From: Straminergon stramineum
Taxonomy: Eukaryota > Streptophyta > Bryopsida > Hypnales > Calliergonaceae
NCBI GenBank assembly: GCA_963920665.1
Contig: OY987263.1
Location: 42,009,218-42,073,217, forward strand
Length of the DNA stretch: 64,000 bases
Direction of reading: 5' to 3'
Positions 19,460 through 62,851 of the stretch are shown piece by piece. Under the pieces are notes generated by a model that saw only the letters and a program-made list of their open reading frames with translations, was not told where the DNA came from and ran no database searches. A program made the translations under genes and the position numbers. The stretch's first letter is position 1; each line of letters begins with the position of its first letter.

Positions 19460-19664
19460 CACTAGTAGAAAACTGCATTGTAGTTAACAAAATTCTGCTA
19501 ATGCATTTTTGTGTTTTCTACCAAAAAACTAAGAATTTGCGTTGGCTACAACATAAGTTTTTGAAAAGTGCATTGCAGCCAATGCAAATTCTTAGTTTTT
19601 TGGTAGAAAACACAAAAATGCGTCAGCAGAATTTTGTTGACTACAACGTAGTTTTCTACCAATG
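19460..19664. mobile_element. CACTA-type fold-back MITE
   Basis: It starts CACTAGTAGAAAAC, and the two ~98-bp halves are reverse complements around position 19562: CATTTTTGTGTTTTCTACCA in the left arm and its complement in the right. The right end has decayed to TTTTCTACCAATG. CACTA starts followed by (C/G)TAGAAAA are typical of the CACTA (En/Spm) superfamily. The near-perfect hairpin could be transcribed into a small-RNA precursor. Confidence 0.75.
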
Positions 19665-38025: not shown

Positions 38026-38354
38026 TACTATAAAAAAACTTTGTAAAAAAACTACAATCAAAATCAAGTGTAGTTCTTTTGACCATATTTTTGTACAGGC
38101 CCACTCCTTCGTTGTTATTTTCTTTTGCAATTTTTGACTATAATTTTTAAAAATTTTGGGTGTGTAACATACCATTGCAAGGATCTTGCAAATACATTTC
38201 CAATGGTATATTATACACCCCAAAATTCTAAAAATTGCAATGGAAAATTGCAAAAGAAAATAACATCCCACTACTAGCTCATGCACAAAAACATGGTCAA
38301 AAGAATCGCACTCAAATTTGAGTGCAATTTTTTTTACCATGTTTTGTTATAGTG
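38026..38354. mobile_element. CACTA-type fold-back MITE with TTC target duplication
   Basis: The left end TACTATAAAAAAAC and right end GTTTTGTTATAGTG are inverted; the right end gives the canonical CACTATAAC. The arms pair over most of the 329 bp, for example TTATTTTCTTTTGCAATTTT with its complement and ATACCATTG with CAATGGTAT. The flanks are TTC at 38023-38025 and 38355-38357, the 3-bp duplication expected for CACTA elements. Confidence 0.8.
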
Positions 38355-40297: not shown

Positions 40298-41479
40298 TTT
40301 GCATAGTGTACAATTCATTATTCATTTCAAACTTTTTGCAAATTAGATTTCTAATCAACCATTCAAGATTGACAACATCCAAATACTAAAGGATTAAGAA
40401 TAAAAATTTACTCATTTTCTTAAAATATTTCCAAAAAGGTTGGAACTTCTTGTGGAAGCAATTAGGACTTATGATGATTTAAAAATGATTCTTGACTTTC
40501 GAAAAACATTTATGTCATCCTCAAAAAAAACTATAGGCATACTTCAACATGCTAATATGACATTGAAAAGGACACTTCGGTTGACATATACTTTTGTTCA
40601 CCTAGGTATTAAGGGATTAAGGCGTGTTCCCACCTAGCATTTGGCAACTTTGGTTATTAACAAATACATCATAAAGTATAGAACCTACGGATTGTCAACA
40701 ATTATCTTGTGGTTATTGTTGTTTCATAGGTGTGCACGTTAATTTACAATTTATTACATCATTACGATGTACATGATTACTACATTGATTTGGGACTACT
40801 TTATAATCGGTATTAACTATATGGCTTCAGTTTGTTAATCAAATGAACAAAAAAGACATAAATTATACATGTAAAATAATTATCATTGTTGTGCATTTTA
40901 TGTGCATTTCAATACATGGAAAATCCATGACAATAATGTCATTGCTCTTTGTATTGTAATACCTCTTAATTAATGATGCAATCATTAAGATATAAACTGA
41001 AATTGATTTGTGTGTGTATTAACCAAGTGCTTGTATTTTGTAAATTAAAATATCCACTACTCTAGCTTGAAAATGAACTATAGAAACAAACTTGACCACA
41101 AAATCCATGATTATTAGAGGCCACACAACTCCACCTTGAATTGAATCCATTAGTAGGCCACCAAGAAACTTAATGACATAGAGAGAATCACTTCATGGAT
41201 TTTTGGTGGGAATGGTGGGTGGAGAGGCCCTTTTTATACTAAAGTCCATTGTCCATCATGAACACTCAAAGGATATGGGATAACTTGAAGATGAAAGCTT
41301 GATTGCTCATTGCCAATTGAAACATCGGAATTGTATTGAAAGTTGAAATTTAGACTACATTCAAGTATAGTAGATTATTTTTTTTCAAAAAGATTTAAAC
41401 AAAAAAAAGTTGAAAAATCAATCTAGTTTACATTTCCAAAGAGAATATCCTAGGAATCCCATATCCAAACAAAATTCAA

Positions 41480-42605
41480 AGAGAATGTTTGAAAATGTCA
41501 AAAAAATCATATGTTTTAACTCGTCTTTGAACTTTGTCCATAACTTTTGATTGAAGGCTTGAAATCTCAAATGGATTTTTGGAAATGAACGCTAGATTGA
41601 TTTACCAACTTCTCTTAGTTTAAAGTTTTTTGAAAAAAATTATTCTACTTAGCCTATATGAGGACTGAATTTCTACTTTCAATACAATTCCTGCTTTTCA
41701 ATTGATCTCATACTCTAATTGTGAAAGATAAAAAAAATGCAATGTTAGTGCAATAATTATGCATTGACATGATGTTGTATGATTATTGTACAAGCTTGAT
41801 ATGTCTCAAATACACACTAATGTAGAACGTAGTCAGTCATCCACCACTAAACCACTGAAATCAACCATTGAGATCATTCATTTTCAATCATGCATAGTTA
41901 TCGTGTAACTTTAACACTTCAAACTCAAATATGAATGACATATCTAAACCACACTATAATTACAAATGTCAATATCATGTTGAAACAATGTTTGCAAATG
42001 AATGTAACATAAAAGTAATGCCTAACAATAATTGTACGACTATTATTAACAATTCATGATAGAGGAACTTTGTAATGTAATACCTCTATATAATGACACC
42101 TAGGCTTGATTTTTCTCATAGAAAAACATTTATTGCATTGGTTTCATTAAAAATTTAGTCATCACAAGCTATCCAACATTTAGACTTAATTCTAAAAATA
42201 TAATATTAGAAACTTAATATTGAAAACTTAATATTGGATCATCCTAATGACCAACATATAGCCAAAGGTCACCCCACAAGTGAAAAATGATCAAAATTTG
42301 AAAATCTAAATGATTTTGAAAATAAATATATCACCTTATCGAATCTAAAGAAGATTGATTGTAAAGACCACTCATTGTGCAAAGGTAAAGATTGTGTTCA
42401 ATGAATAACTTCAAACTTCATTTGGGCATAATAGAATATCTTTTTCTAAAAAATTTTGAACCAAGACAAGTTAATAAATCACTTTAACTTTCATCTCCAA
42501 AAATTCGTTTAAGATTTCAAAATTCCAATCAAAAGTTATGAACAAAATTCAAAAAGAAGTTAAAAGGGACATTTTCTTTGACATTTTCAAACATTCAAAA
42601 AACAT
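41480..42605. repeat. Large inverted repeat, possible long-TIR element
   Basis: The arm at about 41480-41690 (GAATGTTTGAAAATGTCAAA, CATAACTTTTGATTG, CTTGAAATCT, TGATTTACCAACTT) pairs with the reverse complement of about 42400-42605. The spacer is about 700 bp, AT-rich and without frames. This arrangement suggests a decayed element with ~200-bp terminal inverted repeats. Confidence 0.5.
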
Positions 42606-43101: not shown

Positions 43102-46100
43102 CTAACTCGAAAATTTGTCCGACAGCATCTTCTTTCCCCTGCAGTAATCACTGCCACATAGACAGTTGAATGCTGGAATGGGGTGCTCTTCGTCTTCAAA
43201 ATCGATGCCATAATCCCACGTGAGCTCCTCCTTAGGTTTCACTGGACGGTTAGTGAAAAAAGCCACGTGATAGTAATGACGATCAGGGCTCTCAATCTCG
43301 ACTGGCATGTCCATAAGATTTGCATCTTGACACCTGCAAAGTATACTTCATGAGCAATCGATACAGCCAATTATATTGTGAAAAATAGAGGGCAAAGAGG
43401 GGTTGCTTTGTGTTGATACAACAGGAGGGATGAGTCCATGGGAGGAAATATCTGGGTTCATAATACTATGAAGTACAGGATAACTTTAACACTCATTAAA
43501 TAACTAGAGGAAACAACAATGAACTTAGAGGTAACCTACCTATGGTTTAAAAATCTTGCAACATTGCCGAAATAGGTGGCATCCAATCCAAGGGCTTCCT
43601 CATCCTTCAAATTGGCTTCGGAGCCCCAATCAGCATCCAAAACGATAGGGTAAGTGTGATGTCCCTCTCCGTTCTTTAGAACATCATTGTTCCGCTCCCA
43701 CATTTCACTGTTCGTAAGAATTTCGCCCACATACTCAAAAACAAAAGCACCAGCTGGAAGATCCTCCAAGGACTTGATCCCCCATCCTTTGCCTTCAGGT
43801 GTCATGAACACCTGAACACATCCGATTCATTCCAAAATTAGGAAGTATGAACATGACAAAATAAGATCAAAATGAAATTTCTTCTGAAAATGAAACATTA
43901 TAAAAAGTTCAACTAACATTATTAAGATCTGAAAGTAACGGCACCCATTCAATAACCCTATTGACCCATAAGTTCTTCAACTAGAAATAAAGACCACTTA
44001 AAAACCACAGTAAGGAATAATGGTAAATAAAAAATACCTCTCCCTCAATAATATAGATAAAATATTTGTCATTAGAACAGTCAAAGCTGTGCAGATTCAG
44101 AAGTACATTCTTTAGGGGTTCAACCGTAAGTGCCCAAACTAAATATAGGAAATCCGCTTTGAAAGATAATAGTCAATTATAGTAACTCTTGAAACATATT
44201 CCTATCGTTCAAAACTGTCAAGAATGATTTCTTCTTTATATTGGTACATTTTTTAAGCCTTCTTTGAAGCTAACTAATTGATTTATTTCAACTTACACAG
44301 ATATACATTTGGATATTTGGGCACTTAATGATAAGGAATACTCGTAGTTACTGAATGAAAGTGACCCCAAAAAGCCAAAACTTCAAAGTTTCAGGGACTT
44401 TACAGTAGTCAGATGCTAAAAACTAAACAAAAAGGTGAATCGGAGAAGATACACTTGAGATAACCTTTAACCCCCAAAGAATCAAATCAGGTTTGGGACA
44501 AAACAAAAATGTTTTATAAAATAAGTTAGAGAACTTTTTTGGAGTCTGTATCAGAGAAGATAGACCATGTATCAAAGAAGATAGACCAAGTATCAAATAG
44601 AAGAAAGAACTTATACGATCAAATTTTTTTAAATGGTTTAAGAGTTGTTTGAAATGAACTTTGAACATTGAATTTCAAAAATTCATCAAAAATACAATTT
44701 CAACTCTTAGCATTTGAAAATTTCTATGATTGGCCAAAATTGTAGTTTCAATCAATTTGTGAAAAAAGGCACAAACTTTAATGATGAAAACACTAGAAAT
44801 TTCTCCAAATAGTAAAATTTTCAACACTTTATGTTATTTCTTCTTGTGAGAAACTTTTGGCTATAACAATCTTAGTTTTGAATACTTTTGAATATAAAAA
44901 TAGAAAGACAACCTAATCTAATTTGCATGGAAAAACTTATATTTCCAAACATATATATTGAGCTCGAAACACTACTCATAGTTGGGAGATGACCATAAAA
45001 TGGATGATTTGGCATATAAGAGTAAAGTCCAATTCTAGCTTTCATGTTGTGAATTCTTTTGACCTCTTGTACATGGAAGTGTATTTAATATGCAACAAAG
45101 TACATCTCACAACTTTAAATTAAATAACCCATGAATATTAGAGATATAGAAAAAAAATATGAAGGTTGCAAGTTGCATTAATAACAAAGTGAAATATATG
45201 CCATTAGATTAGTTGCATCCTTGCAAATTCAAAAGTACATTCAATTTGAAGTTCATGCCCTATTTGGTTCAAATCTTTGCCTTTTGGTCACAATATAGAC
45301 TAGAAAAGACTCCAATACCTTTGAAATTGAGTGTACTTTTGAATTTGCAAGGTTGCAATTAATCTAATGGCATATATTTCACTTTGTTTTCGATGAAACT
45401 TTCAAACTTAAATGAACTCATAATCAACTTGCAACCTCAACTTTGCTATGCATGAACCTCAAAGACACCCTCCTACCAATGTAGGGTAATGACATGCAAA
45501 TCAAAGCCTTTCAATGTGACAATTCCCAAGGGAAAACATCAAGGTGCAAGGAATATGTTTTGATACCTCCAATCTACGAGTAATGCCACGTTGGACCACT
45601 CGATTGCCACATTGCTTGCTACATCCACACTTGGACGAGCATTCCTTCACGAAGTCTCGTACGAGATGCCCTTTACAGTCTGCCGGGTCCTCCTCGTTCT
45701 TGTGCCGCTCGATAGGGCAATGGAAGCCGGATTCACAATGGTGCATCTTCTCGGTGATGGAACCGTTCTTGATCTTCAGAAACTGCACGAGTTACCAGAG
45801 AGTAAGATCTGGTCTTGTGTAGTCATGCAAAAATATCAACAAATTGGCTAAGATTTTACGAGATTTCTCTGGACATTCTATATTCCATGGTTTGCAACTA
45901 TGTCCATTATTGCAACATGTACTCGACTTCAGAGCTCACTTTTTGCTATCAAATTGTCATTTATTAAGTAGTGATTTTTCTCTGAAAAGTGTGTAATTGA
46001 AGGAGGCTCTGACCTACATATGAGCTTAGTACCTTTTCAATGTACCGCTGATGTAAGCAGCCATCAGTGGTGTATCCAAATTCTCCTCCTGTTTCTCGTA

Positions 46101-47495
46101 CACAAGCGCATAGGTGGGGCGCAGATAAACAGTCCTTATAGCAGCTGGGACAGCAATCGTCGTCCCCTATCCGCGAAATAGCAAGGTTGATAAAGGCTTT
46201 TTCATACGGTCTGCTCCTTTCAATGTAGAAGAAAGAGGAAGGGAGAGCCTTAGAATTAGATTGGTTTACAATGGGGATGGGAATCGATTCAAATCCTCGA
46301 GATAAATCCTTGATATCGTGCTTAAATTGTCCTTGCACATCACGATCAACATCATAGAACCCTCTATGCGCCAATTCACCTGCCTCTCCAATTAATTCCT
46401 TGAGTTCACGATTGCATTCTTCCTCCTGGCGTAGCCTCTTCAACTTCTTGAAACCTTGAGAACTAGAAATCTCTCTCCTCGACGTAGTAGGAGCACTCTG
46501 GGAATCGAGTTCCTCTTTGGGTTGCTTCAGTTTCTTATGGGCAATGCTATCATCTGGTCTTCTTCTTGCTCCACTGGCCTCCGAATGATCGATCAGCTTA
46601 ACTCCACGACCATCAGTTCGAGGAGTGAGTCCCCCTCTTGAGTGCAACAAAGTGGGACTCTTCTGTACTGATGTCGCTTGCTTCAGTTTCCCATCTCTTT
46701 GCATCTGCTTTCTAGCAATATCTTCTTCTTGTTTGACGTTCTCGGTTGCCATCACCTTCAAGGCAGTTGCGCTCCTCTCGTCATAACCGTGTACCCTCGC
46801 AACCCTCGGAGGAGAGGACTGGAAGTTGTCTTCAAGTTTCTTTGGCCTATCTGGAGTGCCGTTATCAGGCGCTGCGCGTGTTCGCTTTGCCTCCTATCTC
46901 ACAGAATTCCAACGAGAGAAGCTTAGCTTGTAGAAATGCTTTAAAAAATTTCCACTCGCAAACAATGCCATTCAAATGCGAGCATGCGCAAGCAGCACCA
47001 AAGGAGAGAATACAAGGCCATGACCGTAAGCTACTAGAAACAGGCATCTAACAACACCAAATGAGAAAAGAAGGACCAGCTCCACAACACTCACAAGCCT
47101 CGCTTGAAGATTGCATACTTCATCTGCTAGCATTCGATAACCGTCCATCTCGACATGATCCCACATGTCCTCGGACTCGAATACCTAACGAAAATCAGGT
47201 CCCCATTAGTCTGAAACACGAATAGATTCATCTTCCGCATTCGGATATCTCTTCAAGGAGTGATCAATATTCAGCGATGGTTACGAGATGTAAGATTCAA
47301 ATTAGAAGTACTTCGGAGCACAATGCTGAGAGGGTTCTTGCTATTGCTAGTAGCTCTTACCTTGTAGAGTTTTTTCAGAGTTTTGATGACCAAAACACGG
47401 TCAAGACCAACATCCAACATGGCGCTCACTGCCCTCTCTGTCCTCACACCACCATCTCTTGGAGCAATGTCAGCGCCACCTGCTTCGTCGGCCAT
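43102..47495 (-). CDS. SUVR4-like histone H3 lysine methyltransferase (WIYLD + pre-SET/SET/post-SET)
   Basis: Plant SUVR proteins methylate H3K9 in the nucleus, chiefly at transposons. Exon 1 (47495-47362) and exon 2 (about 47188-47099) form a WIYLD domain: AVSAMLDVGLDRVLVIKTLKKLYK plus ESEDMWDHVEMDGYRMLADE (each quoted in part). Exon 3 (about 46897-46030) is a long polar region ending in pre-SET cysteines: CCPSCYKDC, CACVRETGGEFGY. The exon at 45.8-45.58 kb carries ECSSKCGCSKQCGNRVVQRG. The SET domain is in 43811-43545 (GWGIKSLEDLPAGAFVFEYVG, ATYFGNVARFLNHR, the N-H pair) and about 43336-43102 (LTWDYGIDF). Post-SET is CLCGSDYCRGK. All zinc- and SAM-binding signatures are visible, so it looks functional. 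A 1.8-kb intron (45.57-43.81 kb) holds two repeat elements. Confidence 0.9.
44121..44325 (-). mobile_element. Intronic MITE, TAAGTGCCCAAA family, copy 5
   Basis: It lies in the large SUVR intron. The left end TAAGTGCCCAAACTAAATA and right end ATATTTGGGCACTTA form an inverted repeat, the clearest ends in the family. The interior shares ATAATAGTCAATTATAGTAAC, GATTTCTTC, TTGGTACATTTT and GATTTATTTCAAC with copy 1 in the same orientation. Confidence 0.75.
45164..45447. mobile_element. Fold-back element in the SUVR intron
   Basis: GGTTGCAAGTTG and ACAAAGTGAAATATATGCCATTAGATTA, continuing TTGCAAATTCAAAAGTAC, form an arm of about 90 bp (45164-45252) that pairs with 45318-45447. The right arm has an extra ~29 bp. 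The loop is ~65 bp. Non-coding; likely a MITE of unknown superfamily. Confidence 0.65.
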
Positions 47496-49149
47496 CGCTG
47501 ACGGGTCCAGAAGATGAAAGGACTTATGTCCTAAGTATGCCGAACGTCAAGAATTATCCCCCTCCATTATTCTTTACGTTGCTTTGACCCCGAACATTAA
47601 AGGGTATTGATCGTCAACGCTCCACGTAAACCAACAGAGCATTGTCATCAAGTCACAGACATTGATTTTTAACCTCAGCAGCACGTCGGTGCTGCCTTGG
47701 AAATCCCAACCAGGGAAATATATCTCAAATATCTCAACTCCCGACCCAGGGCAGCAAGTTGCAATGAAACAGCCTCGCAAACTTCAGAATCTCCAACCCA
47801 GAAGAACAAAAAGCATCCTCCAAATGTCTCTGGTGTAGCAATTCCAGTGTGCAATCAACTACAGTGTTGCCAGCAAAATTGAAATAAAGAAAGAATCCAC
47901 AGCAATAAAATTGCAAGTCCAGTTCCACAACACCACACACGCTTCGAAGAGACGCCAAGGTCGACGAAACTCTGCAAATACGGAAGAGAATTGATCGCAC
48001 ACTTAGAAATTGAGAGAGCCACTAAAAACGAATAAAAAATAGAAAGACAGTGAAGCTCCTCCTGTAACGAATCAAGAACCTGACCTCACTCACTGCACTT
48101 TCCACTACCACGAAAGAGCAAAATTACGATCCAGAAAATTCTCACATTTTGAAAACAAAGGACTAAAATGGCCTAAAATTCATGATTCTTCGAGAAACCT
48201 ACACTGGCATGATGCAAAGATTACCGACAGAACAACAAATGCAGATTGAACCAAGCAAAATTCAACATGACCTCCGAGAAATGCAGCCCGTGATAGATCT
48301 CGTCAAAGCCAGAGGAAAGCATATTGCAACGACAGAAAATCCGAAACCAAGAAATCCTAAACGATGCTATTCACTTTCGTTTGGAAAGAACACCAAGTTC
48401 TCTCCGCCTCAAAAGTAACAAAGACGATCGGAGAACACTCATCCGATGACTTCCCTCTCACAATTTTAACAAACAGGCTCGCTTTCCAAATTCAAGAAGC
48501 TACACAACCTCCCGACACAATCCGTCATTTCTTAATCTTGAGCGCCCGTAACCCGGGAAGAGCGCCATACCGGTATCAAGAACTGACTTCCAATGCACCT
48601 TCCCCTTCAACACTCCCTCCTCCGATTCAACATAAACCTGTGTCCCGGCGCCAAAAACACGAGCCAACACATGAAACTCCACAGGGCATGCAAAGCTGGC
48701 AAACCGAAATCCGACGAAAGTGACGAAACTATTCCAAAATTTGAACGCCAACAAGAACAGCCTCCCGCGTTCGCAAGAAGCCCCGTTGCCGAAGAAATTT
48801 TGGAGCAAATTGGAGACGTTGAGTGGAAAAACACTACTCACGAGGCGTCGCGGAGTGGGACAGGAGGTACGCCGGCGCCATGAAGGATTGTCAGGTACGG
48901 GGCTCTGGTCCTAAGGAATAGCGACGCCCTAAGAAAATTCCCAGCTATGGAGCTCCCTGGCTTGCCTCCCTCGTCGGCAGCTTGTCACTTCGTAATGAGT
49001 GTCCTCAGCACGATGACGATGACCACGTAACTTCAAGAGTACACTTGAGTTGGAATTTTATTTATATTTTAAATTACTTGTTGGAGGTTTCATTGCAAAA
49101 ATATTCAGATGTCGTTAGGGTTTAGCACAAACAAATGAATGAAAAATCA

Positions 49150-49480
49150 TCCATACCTTAAGTTAGGTTGTTTGTTTTTGTTTGTTACAATGAGATCTAC
49201 AAAATCGTCCATCCCCAGTTGCGTTCTTGGAATTGTCAAAAAGCTCTCTATGAGAAGGGGTGCACAAACTTGTTTCATGACATTCTGACTCCAAAATCGT
49301 CCATTCCACGGTTGCATTCTTGGTACTTTTTGGAAGCTCCCTAGAAGGTGGGATGCATGGACTTGTTTCATGGCGTTCTGACTCATGTTAGAAGAGATAT
49401 TGAATTTCAAAGTTTTTATGAATTAGAAAATTACCTTTACTTTTGTTTTGATTGTCACAACAATACGAGACACACTAGTA
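49150..49480 (+). repeat. Direct repeat flanking the methylase/transposase locus, left copy
   Basis: It starts CATACCTTAAGTTAGGTTGTTTG and matches 61912-62190 in the same orientation (shared TTGTTAC..TGAGAT, TCTTGG..TTG..AAAGC, GGGGTG.ACAA, ATTGAATTTCAAAG, CACACTAGT). Within it, 49200-49290 and 49292-49382 are a local duplication of a ~92-bp unit containing AATCGTCCATTCC and TTGTTTCATG. Confidence 0.6.
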
Positions 49481-49794
49481 CGGATGAAAACTTTGTGGAT
49501 GAAATTGTGATACAATCTACATTTAATAGAAGAGATACCAAAAAAAATTTGAAGGTATTGTCTATTACATATATTTACACAATTTTAGATTGGAAGATGA
49601 GTTGGTGTGATAATCCAAAAGTACTATGTCTTCTATATTTGGCATGATAAATAGAGTCTCTCACACCAATTCTTTGTTTACATACCGTCTCATTCATCCA
49701 AGCAATTCTTGAATCCTTAGAAGATGACCTTTTGCATGACTAATTTCATGAAATTGAGGTAAATAATATATTTACAAATACCATAAGAAAAATG

Positions 49795-49795
<1 letters not shown>

Positions 49796-49827
<32 letters not shown>

Positions 49828-49831
49828 AAAT
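49796..49831 (+). repeat. (AAAT)n microsatellite
   Basis: Perfect run of about eight ATAA/AAAT tetranucleotide units. Confidence 0.9.
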
Positions 49832-50854
49832 AGGTATTAAAGGATTAAAGGATTAACCTTGAGAGGGACCAAATTACTCCATGTTGAACAAGAAGGGATG
49901 CTAGTATATAAGCCTATGAGTGTGTGAGCTTGTGAGCCTCCATTTTTTTTCTTTCAATTTAGGATTTTTAAATTTTGCAGGACCTACGATCGTGGGATTA
50001 GATGTTAGTCTCTAGAGCTCAAATGAACAACAAAAAAATATGCCACTTTTCTATTTTGTACCAAAAAATTGAACAAGTATATATCCAAAAATTGAGATAT
50101 AATCAAAGTAGATAGTATTTGTAAGCAAACACATAATGAAAATAGGTGTAATGGTTTAGGGTGTCTCACTACAAAGCACAAAAATGTAAAATTGCAATAT
50201 GTCATAACACCATCATAGAGGAGACATTTGTAAAGTCTAAAATAGAAAGAGAAAAAATATAGAGCATAAAAAACTAAAATTGAACATAAATTTGGTGATA
50301 GGCAACAATTCTAAATATTATATGCACAAAATGCTCTTGAATGATTGAGTGATAAATATAGTCTTAATCATTGGCCTTTATGTGAATTTAAAGGATGAAA
50401 ATGGTCCACCTCTTTTCTTTTCTTTTTATAACTATGCTTTTAAATAAGAACAAAAATATCTTAGACATTGAATATTTAAAATAAACATAGTAGTCATATA
50501 TTATACACCAAATAAATGTATTATCCCCAAATGACATAACCAAACATTTTTCTAGTTGTTGCCCCTCTTTTTTGAAATGTCTTTTTTGAACTTTTTTTCT
50601 AAAAATAAATATCATTTCTACAATACAGACTAAATAATGGATTCAATGATAAGAGTTTCATTGTTGAACTTTGCTTTGTGGAATTTTATAAAGTTCAATG
50701 GTGGAGTACAATTCAAGGCTTAAGAATTATTGTTCTTTTTGGCATAAGGTAAAGTTTTAGGCCATTAAATTAGATTTCTGCCACATCATATATAGGTAGA
50801 TTCAATTTGAAAATCAAGACAATAGAAATCAAATATCAAATCATAAAAACAAAC

Positions 50855-53800
50855 TCAAATATCATCTAACTCAGATGCACTGAGTTCAAAATAAGAACAT
50901 ACTCTAAGATCATAAAATTTATAAGGTGATAGAGAAATTGAAGATGAATCAAATGAAGCATTAGCATAAGCTAATGCTAAATCTTCAGCATAAACAAGGA
51001 GGCCACAAGGACTAGTAGAGGGACTTTTAAAAAATCCAGGGTGTTGATAAAAAGGCAAAGTTTGCCTTGGCAATGAATTCATCCAACTACAAACAACAAA
51101 CCATATATAAGAATATGTAATAAAAAATTAATATACAAAAGCAAAAAAATTATAACTAAAATTGTTTAAAAGGAAAAATATAAATAAAACTTACTCACAT
51201 AAGTCAAGTAGTGCGACATCTTCAATTAGAGAATCATCATCAATCTCCATACTATCACATGTAGCAATTGAATCAAGAATCTTGGAGATAGTTGTAGGTG
51301 TTATTAATGGCTTTAGTACCTCATCAAAGAATTTGGCATCACGTTTTAATGCTAGGATATGACGATTAGATGAATGAGTTGTTCTTATTGAAGAATCTGA
51401 ATGAGACACAATTTTAAAATTATGAAAACATCCAAATGGAAGTGTAGATAAAAAAATGAAATTAATAATAGACAAAAGTAATTCAATATTGTAGGTTACA
51501 ATACCTGTAGAGGCAACCATGTCTGCCACAATACCACCTACACGGCTCAAGCAATGAATGAAAAGCTTCATCAGAACCTCTGACCTCTCCTTAGCACCCC
51601 TCCATAGCTTGCCATCTTCCTTTCTACATAACTGAGTTGTTGTAGTAATAGTATTGAAAAGAATGTCGTCTGTGCTTAAATCAACCTCGGGAATCGAAGG
51701 ATCAATAGTAATTACAAGCTCTTGAGGTTGCCTTGTAATGGGAGAGGTAAATGATCGAACCAACAATAAAGCCTTGAACTTCAGAGTCTAGAATTCAAAT
51801 TAGAAAGTACACATAAAATCAAAGGAAATTTTATAAGTACTGAATCAATGCCATAAATGAAAGCTTGAAATGAATACTTACATTTTTAGATGGGTTGATA
51901 AGATTTGTCAAATCGAAAAAGTTAATGATAGTTCACTCATCCTTGATCTTGAACTTGTAATTCTTGAAGTATCCTGCCACTTCTCTCTTTACTATAGAAC
52001 TGTCAAGATAAAATAGAAGGAATGCTCCATCATCATGAAGATAGGTAAGAGAGAATGCCATCATTACTTAAAGAAAACTTGGAATTGTGGCATTCCAATG
52101 TAGAATTTGAGATGGTGAATTTAGCTAAGACCCCTTGGAATTTGAAGACCATCTACGGATTCTGCAATAATAAGGTCCACAATAGGTCTCTTTTGCACTT
52201 TGCCATCAAAAAAGAACTCTCTTCTTTGACCAACCTACAAAGACAAATTCTAAGAATATTAGTTTGTGATTGGAAATGTCAAAGTCACAAAACATCATGA
52301 ATTAGAAGCGATGAATTTTACAAAATATGTAACTAAAATTTGATAACAATAAAACATGAAATTAAAAAAAGAAAAATAATTAACTCACCTTTGATAGAAA
52401 AGCCACAATCTCATCAGATGGTGCACCAAATGTACCATTCTTCTTCTTCTCCTCAATGATTTTAACAAAAGAATCATTCAAGATTAAATCCAAAGATGTA
52501 TACTTTGTAGGCAAAGAAGCCAAAGTACTCATCATACCTTTAAGCTTGGGAGGTAGTTCAAAGATAGGAGAGGAGGTTGGCATCAGAACCTTGAGAGTAG
52601 AAGATGTCCTTTGCCATTTTGAAGTAGGGAATATCACCTCAACATTTGAAGAAGAAGGCTTAGTGACAACAAGTTTTTGGAGACTGTCTTGAACTGGCAC
52701 ATCTTCATCAGAATTGTCAAGTTCAACCACTAACTTCTTTGCATTAATCTTTGTCTTCTTAGGCTTTTTGGTTGCATCCTTATCTACCATTTTAGGAGCA
52801 ACTACAATTGTACCTTTGAGGGAGGGTTCAATGGAATCTCAAAGGGCAATGTCAAAAGTGGGAGGTCTTTTGAGGGGACAATCTAAATACCACCCACACT
52901 TTTTCCAATGTATAGGATTCCAAGATTTCATGATTCCTTCTATGAACATGCACTTTTCACTTTCTTTGTTCAAATAATTTGCAAAGAAAGTGGGAGATTT
53001 GGAAATGACTTTAGCAAGGAAAAGAAAATATTTGAAGTACCTATAAAGCACCTTTTGCATAGTTGGTTTGAAGTTGAATTGCTTCTCAATCTTGTGGTTC
53101 TTATGGATCCCTTTATCCACAACAAACTCATGAAAGAATGCAATATCCCACAACAATATGTGCATCATCTCCACATAATCAAAAATAGTGGGCAAGGGAT
53201 CCATACCATATGGAAGATAGTTAATAGACACCTAAATCAACAATTATAGCATCGAAAAGCTTCTCTCTCTCAATAGCCAACTGCCACATACAAAAGTTCA
53301 ATTAGAAGAACGTTATAATAGAATGAAAAGGTTTATAGAAATAATAGTAAAACAATAACAAAGAAAGAGAAGTATTTACCTGAGCCCACCATGTAGCTTT
53401 ATGAAGTCACTTAGAAAAATCAATATCATTAAATTTCGGTTTAGGGAATTTAAGAGCCTCATGAAGAGTAGGAGATTTGTTCCACCTCTCTAACCATTTG
53501 ATCTTCATAGAAGTTTCCATTGCTGAAGTTGCCAACATCCAAAGTTTTTCTTGAGTCATCTTTGGACTTTCATCATGAGTTTCATAGTGATGCTTCACTT
53601 CCTCCAAGAAGGCTGTTATGTGCTTAGGATCTACAATTGGGAGTTGTTTCTTCAATTTTGAATGAGAAGCTACCTTGACCTTGTCAACAACTTTGAATAC
53701 CCATTCATCAACAGCACTTAAAGTCCAGTCAGTTGGATTGGAATACTTCTCATAAAACTTTCTTTGAGCAACAACAACAGTAGCGCCCAACTCTTGCTAC

Positions 53801-56615
53801 ACCAAAAAAATGATATATAAGAATAAACATAATTGAACATGATGGCAACAATTATGTATAGTAAAAAAAGACAATATGAATTGAATTGAAGAACAAAAAC
53901 AAAAAAATGACTTCAAAATTGAAAGAAAATAGAAAATAAAACTTTAGAAATGGACCTAGTATAAGACTCCATTTAGAGCCTCAATGGTTAATGTGAACCA
54001 AGTCCTTTGTTTTGACTTTTGCTTGGCTTCAGCTGTAACAAGATCCTTGTTGGAGACAAGTTTTTCAAAATATGAGAGTGGTTGCCCAATAATACCTTGA
54101 ATGCGATAAAGTTTGTAAACAAGATTTATGAAAACATGGGATCTATGGTTCTTCCTAGTAAAACAAAATTTTTTGTGTTAGAATATGCAAAGCAAACATC
54201 CAACCAACAAAAAATTAGAATAATGACAATTGCAATGGTCCAAAGCAAACAAGCCTTTGAGACTAAGAAATCAAAGGAAAAAAAATTGATAAAGGAACAT
54301 AAGGGCTTACCAATTGACTTCATGTAATGCTCCTAGCATAGTTGCAATGTCTCCTTAACCTCCAAAATAATACTTTCAACAACATAATGTCATGTAAAAT
54401 CATCCACATGATCTCGGTTGATAATAGGCAATTATGTTTGTAGACGGTAATTGCCATCCCAAACCATAAACATCTTACCAGACAACACTTCAAGATCTTC
54501 CTCATTTTGCAATTGTTTTTCAAATGCATCATTTGCACGCATACAATCGACACTCCATGATTTAACATTATCATCCATGACATGTATTGTTTTCCCCTCA
54601 TTGTCTACCAAGGCCACATAAAAAATTCCATTTCCTTCTGTATAACCACAAGTAACAAAGTGTGCAACTAGGTTCATCACATCATTCTTCAAGAAAGGCC
54701 TCACAACTGGCAAAGAAATCATACGACATAAAGGAATGTTGATTTTGGATTTTGCCCTTAGTTGATACCTCAACCGCTCAAGACGAGAAGAAGTGTTTGT
54801 AGTCTCTTTCTTTAAAAATCCATGCAGTTGTAACTCAAGTTGATCTTCAGAAAGAGGCCAAAGTGCAACGTCTACTCTCTATGCTTGTAGATCTTCTTGT
54901 GTCAACATCTTTGAAATGATATCAAAATCAATGTTAGAAGCAATTGTAATTTATATCAATATGTCATATAATATGGTAATGAATATAGCAACAACTTTCT
55001 CTAAGGAAGCCCAAAAATTTCAACATTGGACAAACTTTTTAGCATATATGGGTAGCCATTGTGAGTCTCCAAAATTGTGGCCATTAATGGCTATGGTTAA
55101 TGATGGCCCAAAATTTCAGCATAAGATAGAACTCTTAACATATGTAGAGAAGAAATGTAAGTCTCCCAAACCATGGCTGTTAATGGCTATGTTTAATGAT
55201 GATCCAAAATTTCAACTTAAGATAGAGCTCCTAACAAATGTAGAGATGAAATGTAAGTCTCCAAAATTGCAACCGTTAATGGTTGTGCTCCAAGGTGGCT
55301 TAAAAATTTTAGAATTTGACGAGTTTGTCAATTTTGTGGGTAAAAAATCTAAGGCTTGAAAACTGTAGCTGTTAACGGCTGCGCTCTAGGGTGACCGAAA
55401 AATTTCAAGATTTGACGAGTTTGTCAGTTTCGTGGGTAAAAAATCTAAGGCCTGAAAACCATTGCCATTAACAATTGCATTCTAGGACAGCTGAAAAATT
55501 TCAAGATTTGACAAATTTCAAAGTATTTGTTGACCTACAGCGGAATCTCCAAAAGTATTGCCGTTAATGGCCCGTCCACTGGGAAGGCCCAAAAAACTAA
55601 AGGATTTTATTGAATCACGGCTATGTTGAAAGAAAACTAGAATCCAGAAAAGTATTGCTATTAACGGTTGGCCATTGAGAAGGTAGAAACTAAAAGACTC
55701 ACCTGAATTTGCCTCAGTCCGCACACTTGTTGTCCCCTCATTTGCCTTGCGAATTGCTTCTCTATGCTCATTTTGCTACCACTCGGATTCCACCATAGCC
55801 TCCCCTTCTTCCATCATGGTAGCTTCTTCTTCTTCCTCCTCTTCTTCTTTTTCCATGTGTTGTTGCTTGGGCACCTTTGAAGACAATGACAAAAGATGCT
55901 ACAAGGATTAGGTTTAGGTCGGTGTCCAAAAAAACAAAACAAGGAAGTGATTGGTAGATTTACCTCAAGAGGATCTTTTAAATAACTTCTTCAATTTTTG
56001 AAATCCAAGGCCAAATTTTTTTGCCTATAGATTATGCGCATCAAATTCACTCCAATTTTTTCAAGAATTTTTTGACTCTCAAGCAATGTTACAAAAATCA
56101 ATAAAAACGACAGAAAGTAAAAGGGCTGGATTTTGTCTAAAAATCTGCGAAATCTGATGATTTCAGGAAAGATTCCAAGATGCTGAATTCGTTTTTAGGC
56201 CGTAAAAGACTCAATATGTGTCCGTTTTTTACGTGCTATATACTATTGGAATTGTGCTTTTGATGTAAACAATATGATGAAAAATTGAAAAACTTGCATC
56301 TCATAAAATATTTCTCATACATTCACAAGTTAATATCACTTGGGATCATTATTTTCTTACTATCCTATTTGTACTTCCGGGCTCTACCTCCAACTCCAAT
56401 GATGGTGGTGGTGCTTCTAGCTTGTATTCTTCTTCTTCTTCTTCTTCGACTTCTTCTTCTTCCTCTCCGTTAATGTATTGATCCCAATTACTACAACTAC
56501 AATCAATACTTCGTTGAACTTGGTCTAAAATGAGTTCAACCTCCACGTTATCCTTTCCAATTATTTCACGTGAAACAACACCTCTGTAAGTTAAACTTCT
56601 CGTTGTGCCTGACAT
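50855..56615 (-). pseudogene. Decayed TE-type gene: ParB/Srx-like motif plus N4/N6-type DNA methyltransferase domain
   Basis: Exons run 56615 to 50855. Exon 1 starts MSGTTRSLTYRGVVSRE and has an acidic poly-Glu tract. The exon at ~55.87-55.70 kb is Glu-rich, with a TAG at 55776-55778. The exon at ~54.9-54.3 kb carries GYTEGNGIFYVALVDNEG and KMFMVWDGNYRLQT; VWDGN(H)RL resembles the DG-x-HR motif of ParB/sulfiredoxin folds. The exons at 54.15-53.95, 53.79-53.4 and 53.27-52.39 kb form a long linker ending in Lys/Ser/Pro-rich sequence. The C-terminal exons (52.27-51.2 kb) resemble a class-beta MTase: an expected DPPWG site reads QIPRG (52130), then YLDSSIVKREVAGYFKNY, then KLWRGAKERSEVLMKL, then the SAM-site-like GGIVADMVAST with RHILALKRD. 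The last exon is 51087-50855. Frameshifts and in-frame stops (e.g. 51933, 53407) show it is dead; the catalytic motif is lost. Family match rests on recalled plant TE proteins. Confidence 0.65.
55014..55700. repeat. ~100-bp tandem array inside the methylase pseudogene
   Basis: About six or seven diverged units, each with a CCRTTAAYGGC-type core (e.g. GCCATTAATGGCTATGGTTAA, GCTGTTAACGGCTGCG, GCCGTTAATGGCCCG) followed by AAAATTTCAA(G/C)AT and TTTGACGAGTTTGTCA. It is most likely intronic between the exons at 55.70 and 54.9 kb. A plus-strand frame (54916-55359) is open only because the unit length suits it. Confidence 0.7.
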
Positions 56616-57451
56616 ATCAGCTTCAATGACTCAAGGTAATCATCTAATCATTCTAGCCTTTAACAATTGCCCTCTACTTCAATAACGAAAGCTACTTTTT
56701 CTCCTCTTCTTTTTCCTACCCTAAACTAGAGTGGCCAACACTAACAATGGACAAAAAAAGTTTTCTTGCATCTGAAATAATGAACCAGCGAGGCATTATA
56801 ATGGCAACATCCTCCATGATACATCACATAGTCTTTCAAACATGCATTTCTGTATACTACTTCATTCCATTCAATATGCTTTTATAATGTATGAAACTTT
56901 GACAACTCCTCTCTAGTAGGTTAATGTTTCATTTTAGTACTAAGTAACAACTACTTCTGTCTATTATTAATATGTTTATCAACCACAAGATTTTTAATCG
57001 ATCTCTACATATATAATTATAAATGCAAGCATGTCATGGTATTCCTACAATACAATGCATGATGATCCATCATCTCTTGTTAGGGCCAGTTGTAACAATG
57101 CCAATAGGATCTGACACAGTTTCATACATCCTTTGTATTATAATTCATTTATTACTCGTGATGTGCTTATTGATGCCATGCAGTATACCGCCTTACCCAC
57201 CTCCATTTTAGACGTTCATCATAAATCCTCTTCTATATCTAATCTTGATATGATAAGTAATAATCAACATTCCCATCATCAATACTGTTTCAAATTTTAC
57301 TACATCCACAAAATTTTGTTTGTTTGTTTGGAACATCCCTATAGGTCTTTCCTTCTTTATATTTACACCCCTTGCACTTGCAAACATCATTGTTTGGTTC
57401 TCATTGCTTATGAGTGTTGTTGCTTGTCTACGATTTCCTCCAATACTTCAC
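56616..57451. promoter_or_regulatory. Shared intergenic region between divergent TE genes
   Basis: About 840 bp separates the ATG at 56615 (minus strand) and the ATG at 57452 (plus strand). No frame is supported. Head-to-head starts imply a bidirectional promoter in the ancestral element; I see no specific site to point to. Confidence 0.4.
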
Positions 57452-60400
57452 TATGGCTAGTATCATTGCCAAAGGTCATGAGGTCCCATTTGTTTTATTT
57501 TTAGGTAGTCAAGGTTTTGTGCATGTGCCCACCCATCTCCTTCATGTTCGCTTTGGATTCTCCCCTTCTTCTATTGTTGTAGAGGAAGAAATCCAAGGTG
57601 ACTTTGGTGTTGTTAAAGAATCTATCTTGCAATCAAGATGTAGTGATCATGAAGGGTTCTATTGGATTCTTCCTTTAGGACGCTATAGAGTTTATGGTCT
57701 CTCGCAGGAGCTCTTGCCATCTTCGACTAAAATACTAACACTTGTTTTTCAAAAGTCCAATGCTGAAAGTTCATTATTACGTCAAGTCAAAGTGGAGTCT
57801 CTAGGCAGTGGATGTTCCAAGAACAAAATTTTGTTCCATATCAACAATGTTAAACATGAGTCCCTAGAACTAGTAATAGACTTATCCAGTGATTTTGAAG
57901 GTGAGACACCTATTATAGTTTCTCAACCTTCTTCTTCAAATGTTGCTTTGCCATCCATGGTAGAGTCATCCCCTCCTACTACCTTTTGTACTAGCCTTCG
58001 TAGTCCTACATCTTCTGGGTTTTCTCGTCCTCCTCTCCCTCCCAATCATCACGATTCCCTAAGTGTATTGCAATGCCTTTGCAAATTGTCTTTAGTACCT
58101 GGATCACAGAATGAACTTGCCCAAATTGATTTCAATGCCATTCAATATTAGAATGTTCAGTTCCTTCCAACTAGATTCGATGGTGATGTTCTCTTTGAGT
58201 TGCCACCATGTCATGGATCTACAAGTGGGGCTAGAGGCATGGAGGGCATGGATAAACGGTATGACGGTCACGCGTGGTGTCGCACCATGACATCCAACAT
58301 CCATAATGACCTAGGTTTAAAGTTTAGAAAGTTGAATTGTGTTGGCCATTTGATATGTGAGAATACAAAATGTGACTACCGCACACGAGCTTTGAAAAGT
58401 AATGAAATGGAGTGGATTGTGACCACAAAACATTCTTTTAGCATAGGATACATTCCACCACTAGACTCTACTATGCTTTGTAAATTTTGTAGACAATCCC
58501 CTATTTGCCTCAATCTATGTAACTCGCGCATTTATTATGTACTCAGAGCAAGAGATTTGTCACGTGCATGCATCCATTTGGGTGTCCATTTGCAGACAGC
58601 TATTGTAGAGAGTTTCTAGAAGCAATCACTGGATTGATCACTCACAAAGTGGCTAGAACTCCAACTGCTAAAACTTCCGCCATTGCCATGGCAGCAAGCA
58701 AGGAGTTCCTCGACACGTTCCTTATTCACAATGGATTAGGATCAAAGGAGATGCTCCACAATGATGCATTAGAGAATGTCATGGATAAGTTCTAGCTCCT
58801 TAGCTCATCCAATGTGTGCAACATGATATCCTCTTTTCGAAGCAACAACAACAATGGTGGCGAGATTGATTGTATTCTTGACATAAAGGGATGTGCCAAA
58901 ATCGAGTACATCCATAACAATGTTTTTCCTAGACAAGGGCAAGAGAAGGGGTATTTGTTAAAGATGCTTGTGGATGGACCTGGAAGTGGAGTCGATCTCG
59001 TATGACGGATGCAACTTAGCGGTGACCTTGAGAACTGCTTTGTCATGTTTGATCATGTGAAGAGGGTGAAATTGTGGACAACTATTGCTTGTCACGTCTA
59101 TGACTCCACTTATTGCAAAGTCATGACCATTGCCATATGTGATATGTAGACTGAGGGCACCGAAGGCCAAATCATTTTCTGGTATTGTCTTAATAAGGTC
59201 ATGGTGCAAAATGGGGTGTCAAATCCAACCTTCAAGGGATTTATGTGTGATAGTGCCCAAGCCAACTTTAATGCAGTTCTCATTGTGTATGGATCATGGG
59301 ATTCATCCATTCCAATGGTGGATTGAGTAAGGACTTGCTTGCTCCATTGGGCAACAAGCATACCCAAGCATACAGAGAAGCTAATCACCAAAGAATTCCA
59401 GAACCAACATATCTAACTTTGCAGACAATACAAAGATGTAACATCAATATTCGAGGCGGACAAGATGTACCTAGAAATTAGAGCTTGGTGGTACTCTTCC
59501 AAAGCTGCATCAGAACCAACAATTCGTGAACTTAAGGATTGGCTTGCATTTTGGCAGTTTCGATATCATTAGTGGGGTGGATTTATGGAAACGGTATGGG
59601 CTTTACTCTCATTTCTTTTTTTTTTCTATTTCTTATTCTCTACTACAAACCATTCAAATAATAATTTCATTCATCATCTTTACAAAAATTGACAACAAAG
59701 GAACTAGCAAACATCCCAACATGCAACCTCACAGAAACTGTGCACAACAATGGATGCAGACTTCCGGTAAACATGACTATGACCTATTTGTTGCCACGTA
59801 CAATGATTGGGTTTGAGCCTTCATACAAATGATGAACTACAGGGCTTATCTGTGCAGCGGACCTTCTGGGAAAGGCCCCTCTAGAGGAGATTTGAAACTC
59901 AAGAAAGCTATGGCATCTAGAGATGGAAAGAAAATTGTAGATGCACTCAGTGAGATGCTTGGAGCAAAAGACATTTGTACTTGAATTCCGCACTTGGAGG
60001 GGGAAGAGATATTTAGCTCTAGTAAAAGAAAATTGGATCTTCTAATTGGTTCCGAGGATGATTCTCATCGCCCCAACAAGGTTAACCTCTCTAACCCTGG
60101 GGTTCAAACTAGATCAGTCATTTCTAAAGTGCAACTTGAGACTATGGGTGAAGAGTTTAACATGGTCATGCCTCATACCTGATCTGTAGTGGAAACTGAT
60201 TGCAGTACATCGAAGTGGCATATAGCACGAATCTCACACAAGTCAAGGAAACAACATCATGCCATTCAAAAGTATACGCAAGCCAAATACAAGCTTTTGA
60301 TTATCAAGCATGGTAAATCCATTGTTGCCCCTACTTACAAAAGGCAAAAGCTTGAATATAAGGGCACGGCAATTCAGACAGAGGATTTTTGGTTTTGTGT

Positions 60401-61067
60401 AGACCAAATTGCACGATGTGTCATGGGACCTAAATGATCCCATGTTCTTACTCGACCTGAGATCCCTAAGGTCTAGCCTATTCTTATTGATACCAATCTT
60501 ACTCATACCGAAATCATAGAGCTTGAAAAAGATGGGTTTCGTTTGTAGTCCAGTGTACCAATGTCACCTTGATGTCTATTTACCTCGTCAAAGATATTTG
60601 AGCCTATATTGTGGACTCATCCTCGACCAACACATGCCGAAAGAATTCTCTCCATTTAGAATGGCAAGCAAATTCATCAGAGTACTAAAACACCCACTAA
60701 AAATCACCGCAATCAGTGGGAAAGTGCAAGGAATGTTACAGCAAGTATTATTGGGGTGAACTTCCTTCCTTATCCTGGACTTAGTGCTAATATTACACTT
60801 CTATCTGGAATTGATCCTTATGAGAAGGTTTATAACATTACACTTTGCAATTTTCCATCTTGTACTTGTCTCCATTATGGAAGTATGAATGGGACCTCCA
60901 TTGGAAAGTGTGGCATGTACATAAATAGGAAACACCTTTATTACATCTTTCGTTACTTCTGCAAATTGGATTATAAGACAAATATGTTCATCCACACTCC
61001 TACCTTTAGCTTGAATGAAGTTAAGCAAGTACTTGTTGCTGCCAGAATCATGAAGACATACAAGTGA
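57452..61067 (+). pseudogene. Decayed Mutator-like transposase: zinc region, DDE-like core, SWIM-like finger
   Basis: ATG at 57452 opens MASIIAKGHEVPFVLFLG. One continuous frame runs to 58619 (one stop at 58149), shifts near 58590, then runs to 61067 with one short intron (about 59597-59660). A Cys/His-rich region has CVGHLICENTKCDYRTR, CKFCRQSPICLNLC and ACIHLGVH. The DDE-like core shows VDL.RRMQ-type sequence, CFVMFDHVKRVKLWTT, CHVYDSTYCKVMTIAICDM, FKGFMCDSAQANFNAV and EIRAWWYSS. A C-terminal SWIM-like finger reads NFPSCTCLHYG ... NRKHLYYI, where the expected Cys before KH is Arg. Zinc ribbon + DDE + SWIM is the order of MULE transposases. At least 15 in-frame stops (7 TAG, 7 TGA, 1 TAA) and one frameshift make it non-functional. 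Confidence 0.7.
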
Positions 61068-61911
61068 GCAAGTTAGTTGATAGATATTAACATGATATGA
61101 AGTAGATATGTTGTACTAGTGTATAATCTTCAAAATTTCCAAATTTCCATAGTAAAATATTATATTCGTATTCCTATATGTATCCTTTGTTCCATTGATA
61201 GGATATTTTATTATGTATTCAATATTCTACATCTTATTATATTTACCTTGGATTCATTTTCATCTCATATTTACAATTGCCTCTCAATTCTTTGTTCATT
61301 CACTTTATCAATCCACTATGAGGTGGCCTTTTATAAATTTGGAAAAATGCAATAGCACCAACTTCCCAAGCTTTTAAATCTTAAATCCACGGTCATGGTT
61401 TCCGTGGTAATAGGTCATATTTTTCTAAATATAATAAATTTTGTTGAAAAAACATCTGTCTCTTACCTTTTTTACCAAAAAAAATTTAGAAATTACATCA
61501 TGTTTTAAATTTCTAGGCTCTAGGCTCACATAATTCCTACTCACCGCTCATAGGCTCATACTCACATGCTCACATGCTAGTGTCATTGGTTGAACAAGTG
61601 GTTCAATTGATAATACTACAAAGAGAACATTCATACTAACCTTGAGAGGAATAGAATAAACCCTCTGACATTGGAGGGTTGAGATTGGAGGAGAATATTG
61701 TAGGCTTATTTTTTACTCTCAAAGGTTAAAATTATATGTCCTTTGTGTAAAAATACACTAGATTAGAAAAGATACATTCCTAACATTTTGACCATTCTAG
61801 GTACGTAGGAATTTTTTCTTTACAATCATGCAATCAATTTAGAACTAGACTTCATTCTTGAATAATTGAGCTTTGGGTCACAATGGGATGAATAATAATT
61901 TGTTAGAAATC

Positions 61912-62190
61912 CATACCTTAAGTTAGGTTGTTTGTTTTGTTTTGTTTTGTTTGTTTGTTACGTTGAGATTTCTAGAATTGCATGTCTTTAGTCATTTTTT
62001 GGGTATTGTTGGAAAGCCCTCAACAAAGAGGGGTGAACAAGCTTTGTTTTGTGAAGTTTGGCCCTATAGTGTAAAAGTTATTCAATTTCAAAGCTATTTT
62101 AGAATGAAAAAATGAAAAAATGACTTCTACTTTGATTTTGATAGTGGAAATGGCATAGGGCACACTAGTTATAACTTCAACCACTATCAT
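61912..62190 (+). repeat. Direct repeat flanking the methylase/transposase locus, right copy
   Basis: Starts CCTTAAGTTAGGTTGTTTG, same orientation as 49150-49480, with an expanded GTTTT/GTTT tract. It lacks the internal duplication seen in the left copy. Confidence 0.6.
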
Positions 62191-62667
62191 CTTCTAATAT
62201 ATTTGTCTACATGTGGAAAAAAAATTGCAATTTTACTATGAGAGTGCATCAAATATTTTTCCAATGATCTCATTAGCCTTATAGTTTGAATTTCTATTAT
62301 AAATCATATCACTTAACTTCTATATTTCATTAATTTGACAAGCCTACAAATTATAGAAGACAACCTTGTACCAATTTTCTACAAAGTAGGAGACTTTACA
62401 ATGTAAAATACCTCAAGCAATAAGTTTTTGTCACACAAAGTGCCTCTCTTTGTGTGACTAAGAAATAAGGCATCTCATACCTTTGCTCATATTTGGTGAT
62501 CCTTATTAAGTAAATGCCTTCAAAAAGATTTATTATCTTATACAAAATTGGGGATATTTTAATTATTTAAGGTTTTGAAATCCCATAGGGTTGAATGAAG
62601 TCAATTTGGTACTTATTAATTAGAAATGCAGATTTTAAATACTTTAAAAGTTTCAACTTATTTGTTA

Positions 62668-62851
62668 CACTAGAAGAAATTCTCATTCATCGACCTGATG
62701 TGTTTTTTCTAGAAAACACAAAATTGCGTTGGAAAAAACGCAATTTTGTAGGTTTTCAGTCAAAAAATTGCAAAATTGCGTTTTTTCCAACGCAATTTTG
62801 TGTTTTCTAGAAAAAACACATCAAGTTGATGCACGAGAATTTCTTCTAGTG
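62668..62851. mobile_element. CACTA-type fold-back MITE with TTA target duplication
   Basis: The left end CACTAGAAGAAATTCTC and right end GAGAATTTCTTCTAGTG are perfect inverted repeats. The arms pair almost completely (TGTGTTTTTTCTAGAAAACAC with its complement, AAAATTGCGTT repeatedly). TTA lies at 62665-62667 and 62852-62854. The 184-bp hairpin is well preserved, so insertion is relatively recent. Confidence 0.88.

What the first reader, a model, noticed from the sequence alone, without database searches (positions are those of the whole stretch)
49150..62190. Putative mobile element pairing a ParB-like/DNA methyltransferase gene with a divergent Mutator-like transposase gene
Two TE-type genes start head-to-head about 840 bp apart. 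Leftward (56615 to 50855) is a ParB-motif plus N4/N6-type methyltransferase; rightward (57452 to 61067) is a zinc + DDE-like + SWIM protein. Diverged direct repeats lie outside both. A eukaryotic DNA transposon carrying its own DNA methyltransferase would be an unusual selfish strategy, such as self-marking or evading host silencing. It would parallel bacterial phages and ICEs that carry ParB-methylase fusions. Co-residence in one element is inferred, not shown.
Basis: partly seen in the sequence, partly recalled or inferred. Interest (0 to 1): 0.88.

Follow-up and report, generated by a model that had tools for sequence, protein, structure and literature searches.

The report
Decayed transposon with ParB–methyltransferase-like gene
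A worn-out stretch of mobile DNA in what is probably a plant genome holds a transposase-like gene back to back with a gene for a bacterial-style ParB fold joined to a DNA-methylase-like fold; algal transposons are reported to carry the same partnership, but here the usual methylase active-site motif is altered or displaced and an array of palindromes that the protein might bind lies beside it.

Summary
The observation largely holds. Two decayed genes lie head to head (proposed starts 56615 and 57453), flanked by real diverged direct repeats. The leftward gene's central exon belongs to a conserved family (80 relatives, best E 3e-86) whose predicted fold resembles ParB/sulfiredoxin proteins. Its later exons (49 relatives) align weakly, but above shuffles, with beta-class amino-methyltransferases. 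In the 14 of 49 relatives showing motif IV, none has [DNST]PP[YFWH] at the strand end; ten residues on, 10 of 14 have [DN]PP[STF], twice DPPF, so ordinary catalysis is doubtful, not excluded. The rightward gene (13 stops) looks Mutator-like by eye only. Both lie in a CpG/CHG-depleted block starting at 49027, as expected of a methylated transposon. [quoted passage not shown] New here: a probable plant host, another transposase type, the altered motif, and a seven-unit 96-bp array whose best-conserved part is a 12-bp palindrome. One element or two neighbours stays open: the host genome could not be searched and no termini were found.

The parts
49148..49480 (+). left copy of the flanking direct repeat (contains an internal ~96-bp duplication, 49197-49291 / 49289-49384)
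61908..62169 (+). right copy of the flanking direct repeat, same orientation
49012..49062 (.). sharp change from host-gene to CpG/CHG-depleted DNA (best point 49027); candidate left edge of the mobile block
50855..54908 (-). leftward ParB-MTase-like gene (decayed), from the ATG opening the ParB exon to the final stop
   Evidence: relatives
54306..54908 (-). ParB/sulfiredoxin-fold exon, family box MFMVWDGNHRLQAW; decayed in this copy
51843..52234 (-). MTase-like exon with motif IV position and following strands; contains stops and a frame change
51505..51787 (-). MTase-like exon with motif X/I block (commonest family form GIVADMTASTG)
51191..51396 (-). MTase-like exon, motif II/III block, aligned with phage and E. 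coli beta-class MTases
   Evidence: splice sites read by eye
52383..53796 (-). middle exons of the leftward gene, no known domain
   Evidence: no Pfam match
55703..56615 (-). proposed 5' exons 1-2 (hypothetical, acidic and low-complexity, no relatives shown)
55080..55668 (.). array of seven ~96-bp units, each with an imperfect 12-bp palindrome (GCYRTTAAYRGC with up to 2 mismatches; starts 55080, 55176, 55272, 55368, 55464, 55560, 55657)
56562..56577 (.). 15/16 match to the bacterial parS site, upstream side of the leftward gene (inside hypothetical exon 1)
57453..61067 (+). rightward decayed transposase-like gene: zinc-knuckle-like N part, DDE-like core, SWIM-like C end (by eye)
   Evidence: no transposase match in Pfam

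Best explanation
This is an old, inactivated copy of a DNA transposon of about 13 kb in a probable land-plant genome. It once encoded a Mutator-like transposase (rightward gene) and, on the other strand, an accessory protein that joins a ParB-type fold to a methyltransferase-type fold. Shown: the two genes, their layout and decay, family conservation of the ParB and MTase exons, a ParB-like predicted fold, the flanking direct repeats, the palindrome array, and the depletion of methylatable cytosines across the block. Inferred: that both genes belong to one element; that the accessory protein binds element DNA, with the seven-palindrome array in front of the ParB exon as the best candidate site; that it helped the element recognise or regulate itself or resist host silencing. 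Because motif IV is altered at its usual place, with a DPP-like motif displaced by ten residues, I give about even odds that the MTase-like part still transfers methyl groups to amino groups or now only binds S-adenosylmethionine or DNA. (I wrote 60:40 for loss of ordinary catalysis before the recount.) This copy itself was probably cytosine-methylated by the host and decayed by deamination.
Against: No inverted termini with target duplication around both genes or either gene. The repeats are direct, which is not how a cut-and-paste element normally ends. The depleted block runs past the right repeat to the window end, so the right edge is not marked. No Pfam profile recognises the transposase or the MTase. 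The motif IV-VIII block scores below zero (-1.7 bits for the consensus, -3.0 for the window read). The MTase structure model was poor (mean pLDDT 54.0). Foldseek gave no ParB match better than E 0.28, and only one of five ParB models was good. A profile comparison of the ParB exon with the N parts of four phage fusions found nothing. A first permutation control for the MTase went against it but was faulty (see Tried and rejected). Linkage to the transposase was not tested in any other genome.
Confidence: 0.57

Rival explanations
1. Two unrelated old transposons landed side by side: a Mutator-like element (rightward gene) and a different element, of unknown transposase, to which the ParB-MTase-like gene belongs.
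For: No termini shared by both genes were found; flanking repeats are direct, not inverted; the depleted block continues to the right end of the window and a CACTA-type miniature element sits at 62668-62851, so the region holds several mobile elements. The published ParB-MTase gene rides Sola1, and giant EnSpm elements with accessory genes are reported in red algae, so the accessory gene need not go with a Mutator-like transposase.
Against: Same layout (accessory gene opposite the transposase) as the published Ectocarpus case; similar CG/CHG depletion of both genes and of the spacer; related repeats just outside both genes.
Confidence: 0.32
2. The leftward gene is a decayed copy of an expanded plant gene family (host or long domesticated), and only the rightward gene is a transposon.
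For: Several exons with splice-site-like borders; strong conservation of the ParB exon; an altered but shared motif IV would fit a repurposed protein.
Against: It lies in the methylation-scarred block, not in the host-gene compartment; many distinct relatives, three of whose clusters lie on 20 or more contigs, fit a mobile family; the published analogues are transposon-borne.
Confidence: 0.1

Closest known systems
ParB-methyltransferase accessory gene of Sola1-1_Ec32 (Ectocarpus) and the green and red algal cases cited with it
   Same: One protein with a ParB-like domain and an N4/N6-type MTase-like domain, 1104 aa there and about 1050-1200 aa in my read-through, encoded opposite a transposase-like gene.
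   Different: Host is a probable land plant; the transposase-like gene looks Mutator-like, not Sola1; motif IV is altered at its usual place; a palindrome array precedes the ParB exon. I had no algal sequence to compare directly, so shared ancestry is untested.
Phage ParB-MTase fusion proteins (by my reading of L003, L004, L005, L012; e.g. Streptococcus phage Javan113, Ruminococcus phage NatCom_28274)
   Same: ParB-like part before the MTase part; motif order IV to VIII, then X, I, II, III.
   Different: Those four have DPPY and D[PF]FxGSGS; here [DE][YF]P[DN]G at the strand end in most relatives and DMTASTG or similar, and a middle region that fusions of 415-444 aa have no room for.
DNMT-carrying retrotransposons of Symbiodinium and Klebsormidium
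   Same: Transposons carrying a DNA-methylation enzyme (PMC5890265, passages read).
   Different: Those are C5-cytosine DNMTs in retrotransposons, described as host-derived and able to methylate CGs de novo.
Mutator-like elements (MULEs)
   Same: By eye: zinc-binding N part, DDE-like core, SWIM-like C end; several MULEs carry extra ORFs (PMC6446971, passages read).
   Different: No profile match; no 8-11-bp target duplication or inverted termini found, though some MULEs lack inverted termini.

Membership tests
ParB/sulfiredoxin superfamily | ParB/Srx fold | tested here: met
ParB/sulfiredoxin superfamily | conserved nucleotide-binding box of the GxHR type | tested here: met
   WDGNHR in 56 of the 65 relatives where the site is visible, of 80; equating it with the ParB/Srx box is recalled
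ParB/sulfiredoxin superfamily | Pfam ParB profile match | tested here: not met
   no ParB family among the 12 families listed for the 40 members scanned, best incidental E 0.0029
beta-class N4/N6 amino DNA methyltransferase | similarity to known members in the order IV-VIII, then X, I, II, III | tested here: inconclusive
   X-I-II-III block met; the IV-VIII block scores below zero
beta-class N4/N6 amino DNA methyltransferase | catalytic motif IV [DNS]PP[YFW] directly after the strand | tested here: not met
   0 of 14 relatives that show the site, of 49; 10 of the 14 have [DN]PP[STF] ten residues on, DPPF in 2; of 13 yardsticks 12 have [DS]PPY and one DILY
Mutator-like transposon | MULE transposase profile | tested here: inconclusive
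   no match, but the copy carries 13 stops and relatives could not be searched in a plant collection
Mutator-like transposon | terminal inverted repeats and 8-11-bp target duplication | tested here: inconclusive
   none found with 14-bp termini (first 8 exact, 2 mismatches or fewer) and 7-11-bp duplications within the window; some MULEs lack inverted termini
transposons with ParB-MTase accessory gene | accessory gene on the strand opposite the transposase within one element | tested here: inconclusive
   layout present; single-element status not shown

The most novel reading that the evidence does not exclude
A land-plant transposon lineage carries its own centromere-like recognition system: a ParB-fold protein that loads on an array of palindromes (ancestral form perhaps GCCGTTAACGGC), and possibly on a parS-like site, between its own ParB exon and the transposase gene. 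Its MTase domain has lost ordinary amino-methyl transfer and serves as a SAM- or DNA-sensing part, letting the element bind, count or shield its own copies against host cytosine methylation.
Probability: 0.11. Interest if true: 0.88.

Novelty: new variant of a known kind. Interest (0 to 1): 0.6.

Why it matters
It would extend transposon-borne ParB-methyltransferase proteins, in print for algae, to a probable land plant, where host DNA-methylation silencing is well studied and can be tested. A family-wide alteration of the catalytic motif would bear directly on the self-methylation idea, and the palindrome array offers a concrete DNA target for binding tests.

Tried and rejected
Full-length search of the leftward gene (residues 153-1126 of the read-through) found no protein with E<=0.01 among 7740 candidates; the length rule (0.55-1.75 times the query) probably explains it, since single exons did find relatives. 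Relatives of the ParB exon in viral contigs and prokaryote genomes, and of a rightward-gene piece in both: none confirmed. MTase read against plasmids by tblastn: 2 weak Streptomyces places, E 1 and 4. Sequence search of solved structures with the ParB exon and its profile: best E 0.16 and 0.74, unrelated proteins. Rfam, PHROGs, NCBIfam and PADLOC were not searched.

Motif IV: the first count used a pattern that demanded a G after the four residues, which could have hidden canonical motifs. Without it 15 sites match, the extra one (P0124, EFLF) outside the family context, and still none is canonical at the strand end. The recount also brought out the [DN]PP[STF] motif ten residues on (10 of 14; DPPF in P0115 and P0119), which argues against plain loss of catalysis.

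MTase controls: a first permutation control went against the reading: 12 of 200 permuted profiles scored above the real one, some at 136, because match columns were chosen by gap fraction; the reversed template there gave 14.7. I replaced it with fixed match columns, where 0 of 200 reached the real score. The control was changed after seeing the result.

Terminal inverted repeats with target duplication: 0 for both genes, 0 for the rightward gene, 0 for the leftward gene (shuffle means 0, 0 and 0.05). A 16-bp inverted pair (49090-49105 / 62252-62267, E 0.04) has no matching flanks by eye and is probably chance.

Array: the palindrome pattern count over the whole window (13) is not above shuffles (mean 15.9); what stands out is that 7 of the 13 sit in one array. 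The units were anchored on matches to that pattern, which favours its conservation somewhat; Tandem Repeats Finder found the 96-bp period on its own in two stretches, 55060-55282 and 55302-55512. Single-strand folding of the array is unremarkable (z -1.44). A coding repeat (96 = 32 codons) was considered; stops in the leftward frame between the repeats and a CAG|GTGAGT donor just before the array argue against it. parS: at up to 3 mismatches one match is ordinary (mean 0.71); at 1 mismatch 0.0017 is expected per 64 kb, but the core is CACGTG, the plant G-box (recalled), found 8 times, and I looked for parS after seeing the array.

Literature searches for ParB with methyltransferase, methylase, Mutator-like, EnSpm or plant and transposon terms listed PMC12477816 and no plant case that I recognised in the titles and abstracts shown (searches showed 20 of 62 and 15 of 39), within an open-licence library only. 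PMC12477816: outline, passages and one part of the reference list seen. Its two cited sources (Iyer 2011; Petroll 2025) were not held: not read. PMC5890265 and PMC6446971: passages only. PMC8885841 and the parS papers: search listing only.
Full report
What is there. The window holds host genes such as a Lon protease C domain (27128-27751, E 1.5e-59) and pre-SET and SET domains on the minus strand (E 1.5e-8 and 4.9e-7); the broken-up coding pieces indicate introns, so I take it to be eukaryotic. Depletion of both CG and CHG sites in some blocks fits a plant with CHG methylation; I could not name the host. Between 49.1 and 62.2 kb two genes lie head to head. The leftward one reads from a proposed ATG at 56615 to a stop at 50857-50855, the rightward one from an ATG at 57453 to a stop at 61065-61067. 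Both are broken: 13 stop codons plus frame changes in the frames I read for the rightward gene; 8 stop codons in my read-through of the leftward gene and a ninth at 54881.

The leftward gene: methyltransferase part. Exons at 52067-51505 have 49 relatives among 78 candidates, the best at 2.5e-53. Neither the reads nor a consensus nor the six relatives scanned matched Pfam's methylases. I collected 13 beta-class MTases: E. coli YhdJ and 12 phage genes, four of which I read as ParB-MTase fusions. The plant profile aligns with them over motifs X, I, II and III in register (score 34.0, P 3e-4, 0 of 200 permuted profiles as high; 24% probability). The window read alone scores 10.5 bits and the consensus 12.8, with 0 of 2000 shuffles each as high. 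The motif IV-VIII block adds nothing (-3.0 and -1.7 bits). The structure model was too poor to use (pLDDT 54.0). In the 14 of 49 relatives where the motif IV site is visible it reads EYPD (7), DYPD (3), EYPN (2), EYLD (1) or DFPD (1), each followed by G; none has [DNST]PP[YFWH] there, while 12 of the 13 yardsticks have [DS]PPY and one has DILY. Ten residues on, 10 of the 14 have [DN]PP[STF], twice DPPF. The window copy reads ESVDG. A motif shared across distinct relatives suggests constraint. I read the domain as MTase-derived, with ordinary N4/N6 catalysis doubtful but possible if the displaced DPP motif serves.

ParB and MTase exons together. In the window they lie on the same strand about 2.1 kb apart. 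Elsewhere P0008 (ParB exon) and P0114 (MTase exon) are each a single-member cluster on an ENA contig of 6164 bases, probably the same contig; I did not see it. One other shared length, 1244, joins clusters from different sources and may be chance.

The rightward gene. Read by eye, it has a cysteine/histidine-rich N part, a core with FDHVKR, FKGFMCDSAQANFNAV and CLLHW, and a C-terminal SWIM-like cysteine stretch. This resembles Mutator-like transposases, but no transposase profile recognised it, and I had no protein search left for relatives. The label is a judgement, partly from memory of plant families.

Decay and edges. CG observed/expected is 0.31 and 0.37 and CHG 0.47 and 0.51 in the two genes, against 0.70 and 1.00 at 20-35 kb. 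In the ParB exon, of 83 positions conserved at 80% or more, 73 are kept, 6 differ by one C-to-T or G-to-A step, 3 by another single step and 1 by more. Within 46-53 kb, a span chosen after seeing the profile, the change from 0.91 to 0.27 in combined CG+CHG lies at 49027 (support 49012-49062), with a log-likelihood gain of 40.0 against at most 16.2 in 200 block shuffles. That is about 120 bp outside the left direct repeat. On the right the depleted state runs to the window end. The direct repeats are real but 62-67% identical. No inverted termini with target duplications were found.

A palindrome array. Between the proposed second exon and the ParB exon lie seven units at spacings 96, 96, 96, 96, 96, 97, each centred on a 12-bp near-palindrome, GCYRTTAAYRGC with up to two mismatches. 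Within the units the 12-mer is the best-conserved stretch (0.82 against 0.67 overall, 0 of 85 windows better), shows no transversion, and is the most self-complementary (8.6 of 12 against a mean of 3.2); the units were anchored on that pattern, which helps it somewhat. Its variation is what deamination of an ancestral GCCGTTAACGGC would mostly give (inference). A 15/16 match to bacterial parS lies at 56562-56577; 0.0017 such matches are expected per 64 kb, but the CACGTG core is a common plant promoter motif and the test was made after the fact.

How it most likely works. I take this to be a dead copy of a two-gene DNA transposon whose accessory protein bound element DNA, most likely the array in front of the ParB exon, and helped regulate or protect the element. 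The host methylated this copy and it decayed. Same-element status, DNA binding and any enzymatic activity are inferred.

What is known. Dinatale et al. 2025 (PMC12477816; [quoted passage not shown] The present case is a variant of that kind; I had no algal sequence to test kinship. DNMT-carrying retrotransposons (PMC5890265; passages) are a more distant parallel. I saw no report for land plants in seven searches of an open-licence library.

Limits.

Noticed in passing
62668-62851: A 184-bp foldback miniature element with CACTAGAAGAAATTCT at both ends and flanks that share the 3 bases TTA: a CACTA (EnSpm)-type MITE.
   Followed up: partly
19465-19659: A 195-bp inverted repeat directly preceded by CACTA, without a clean match at its other end; perhaps another CACTA-type MITE. 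Further large foldbacks at 38027-38353, 41314-41704 and 45162-45409.
   Followed up: partly
about 43540-46893, minus strand (further open frames up to 48910 unverified): A pre-SET/SET histone-methyltransferase-like gene (Pfam E 1.5e-8 and 4.9e-7) has its 5' side towards the change point at 49027, so the mobile block may abut the upstream side of a possible silencing-related host gene.
   Followed up: partly
whole window: CG/CHG depletion alternates in blocks (1-4, 37-43 and 49-64 kb strongly depleted; 21-37 and 46-49 kb not; 5-19 kb mostly not), which outlines likely transposon versus gene compartments from sequence alone.
   Followed up: partly
1388-2103 and 16872-17580: A direct repeat of about 720 bp at 81% identity, unexamined.
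   Followed up: no
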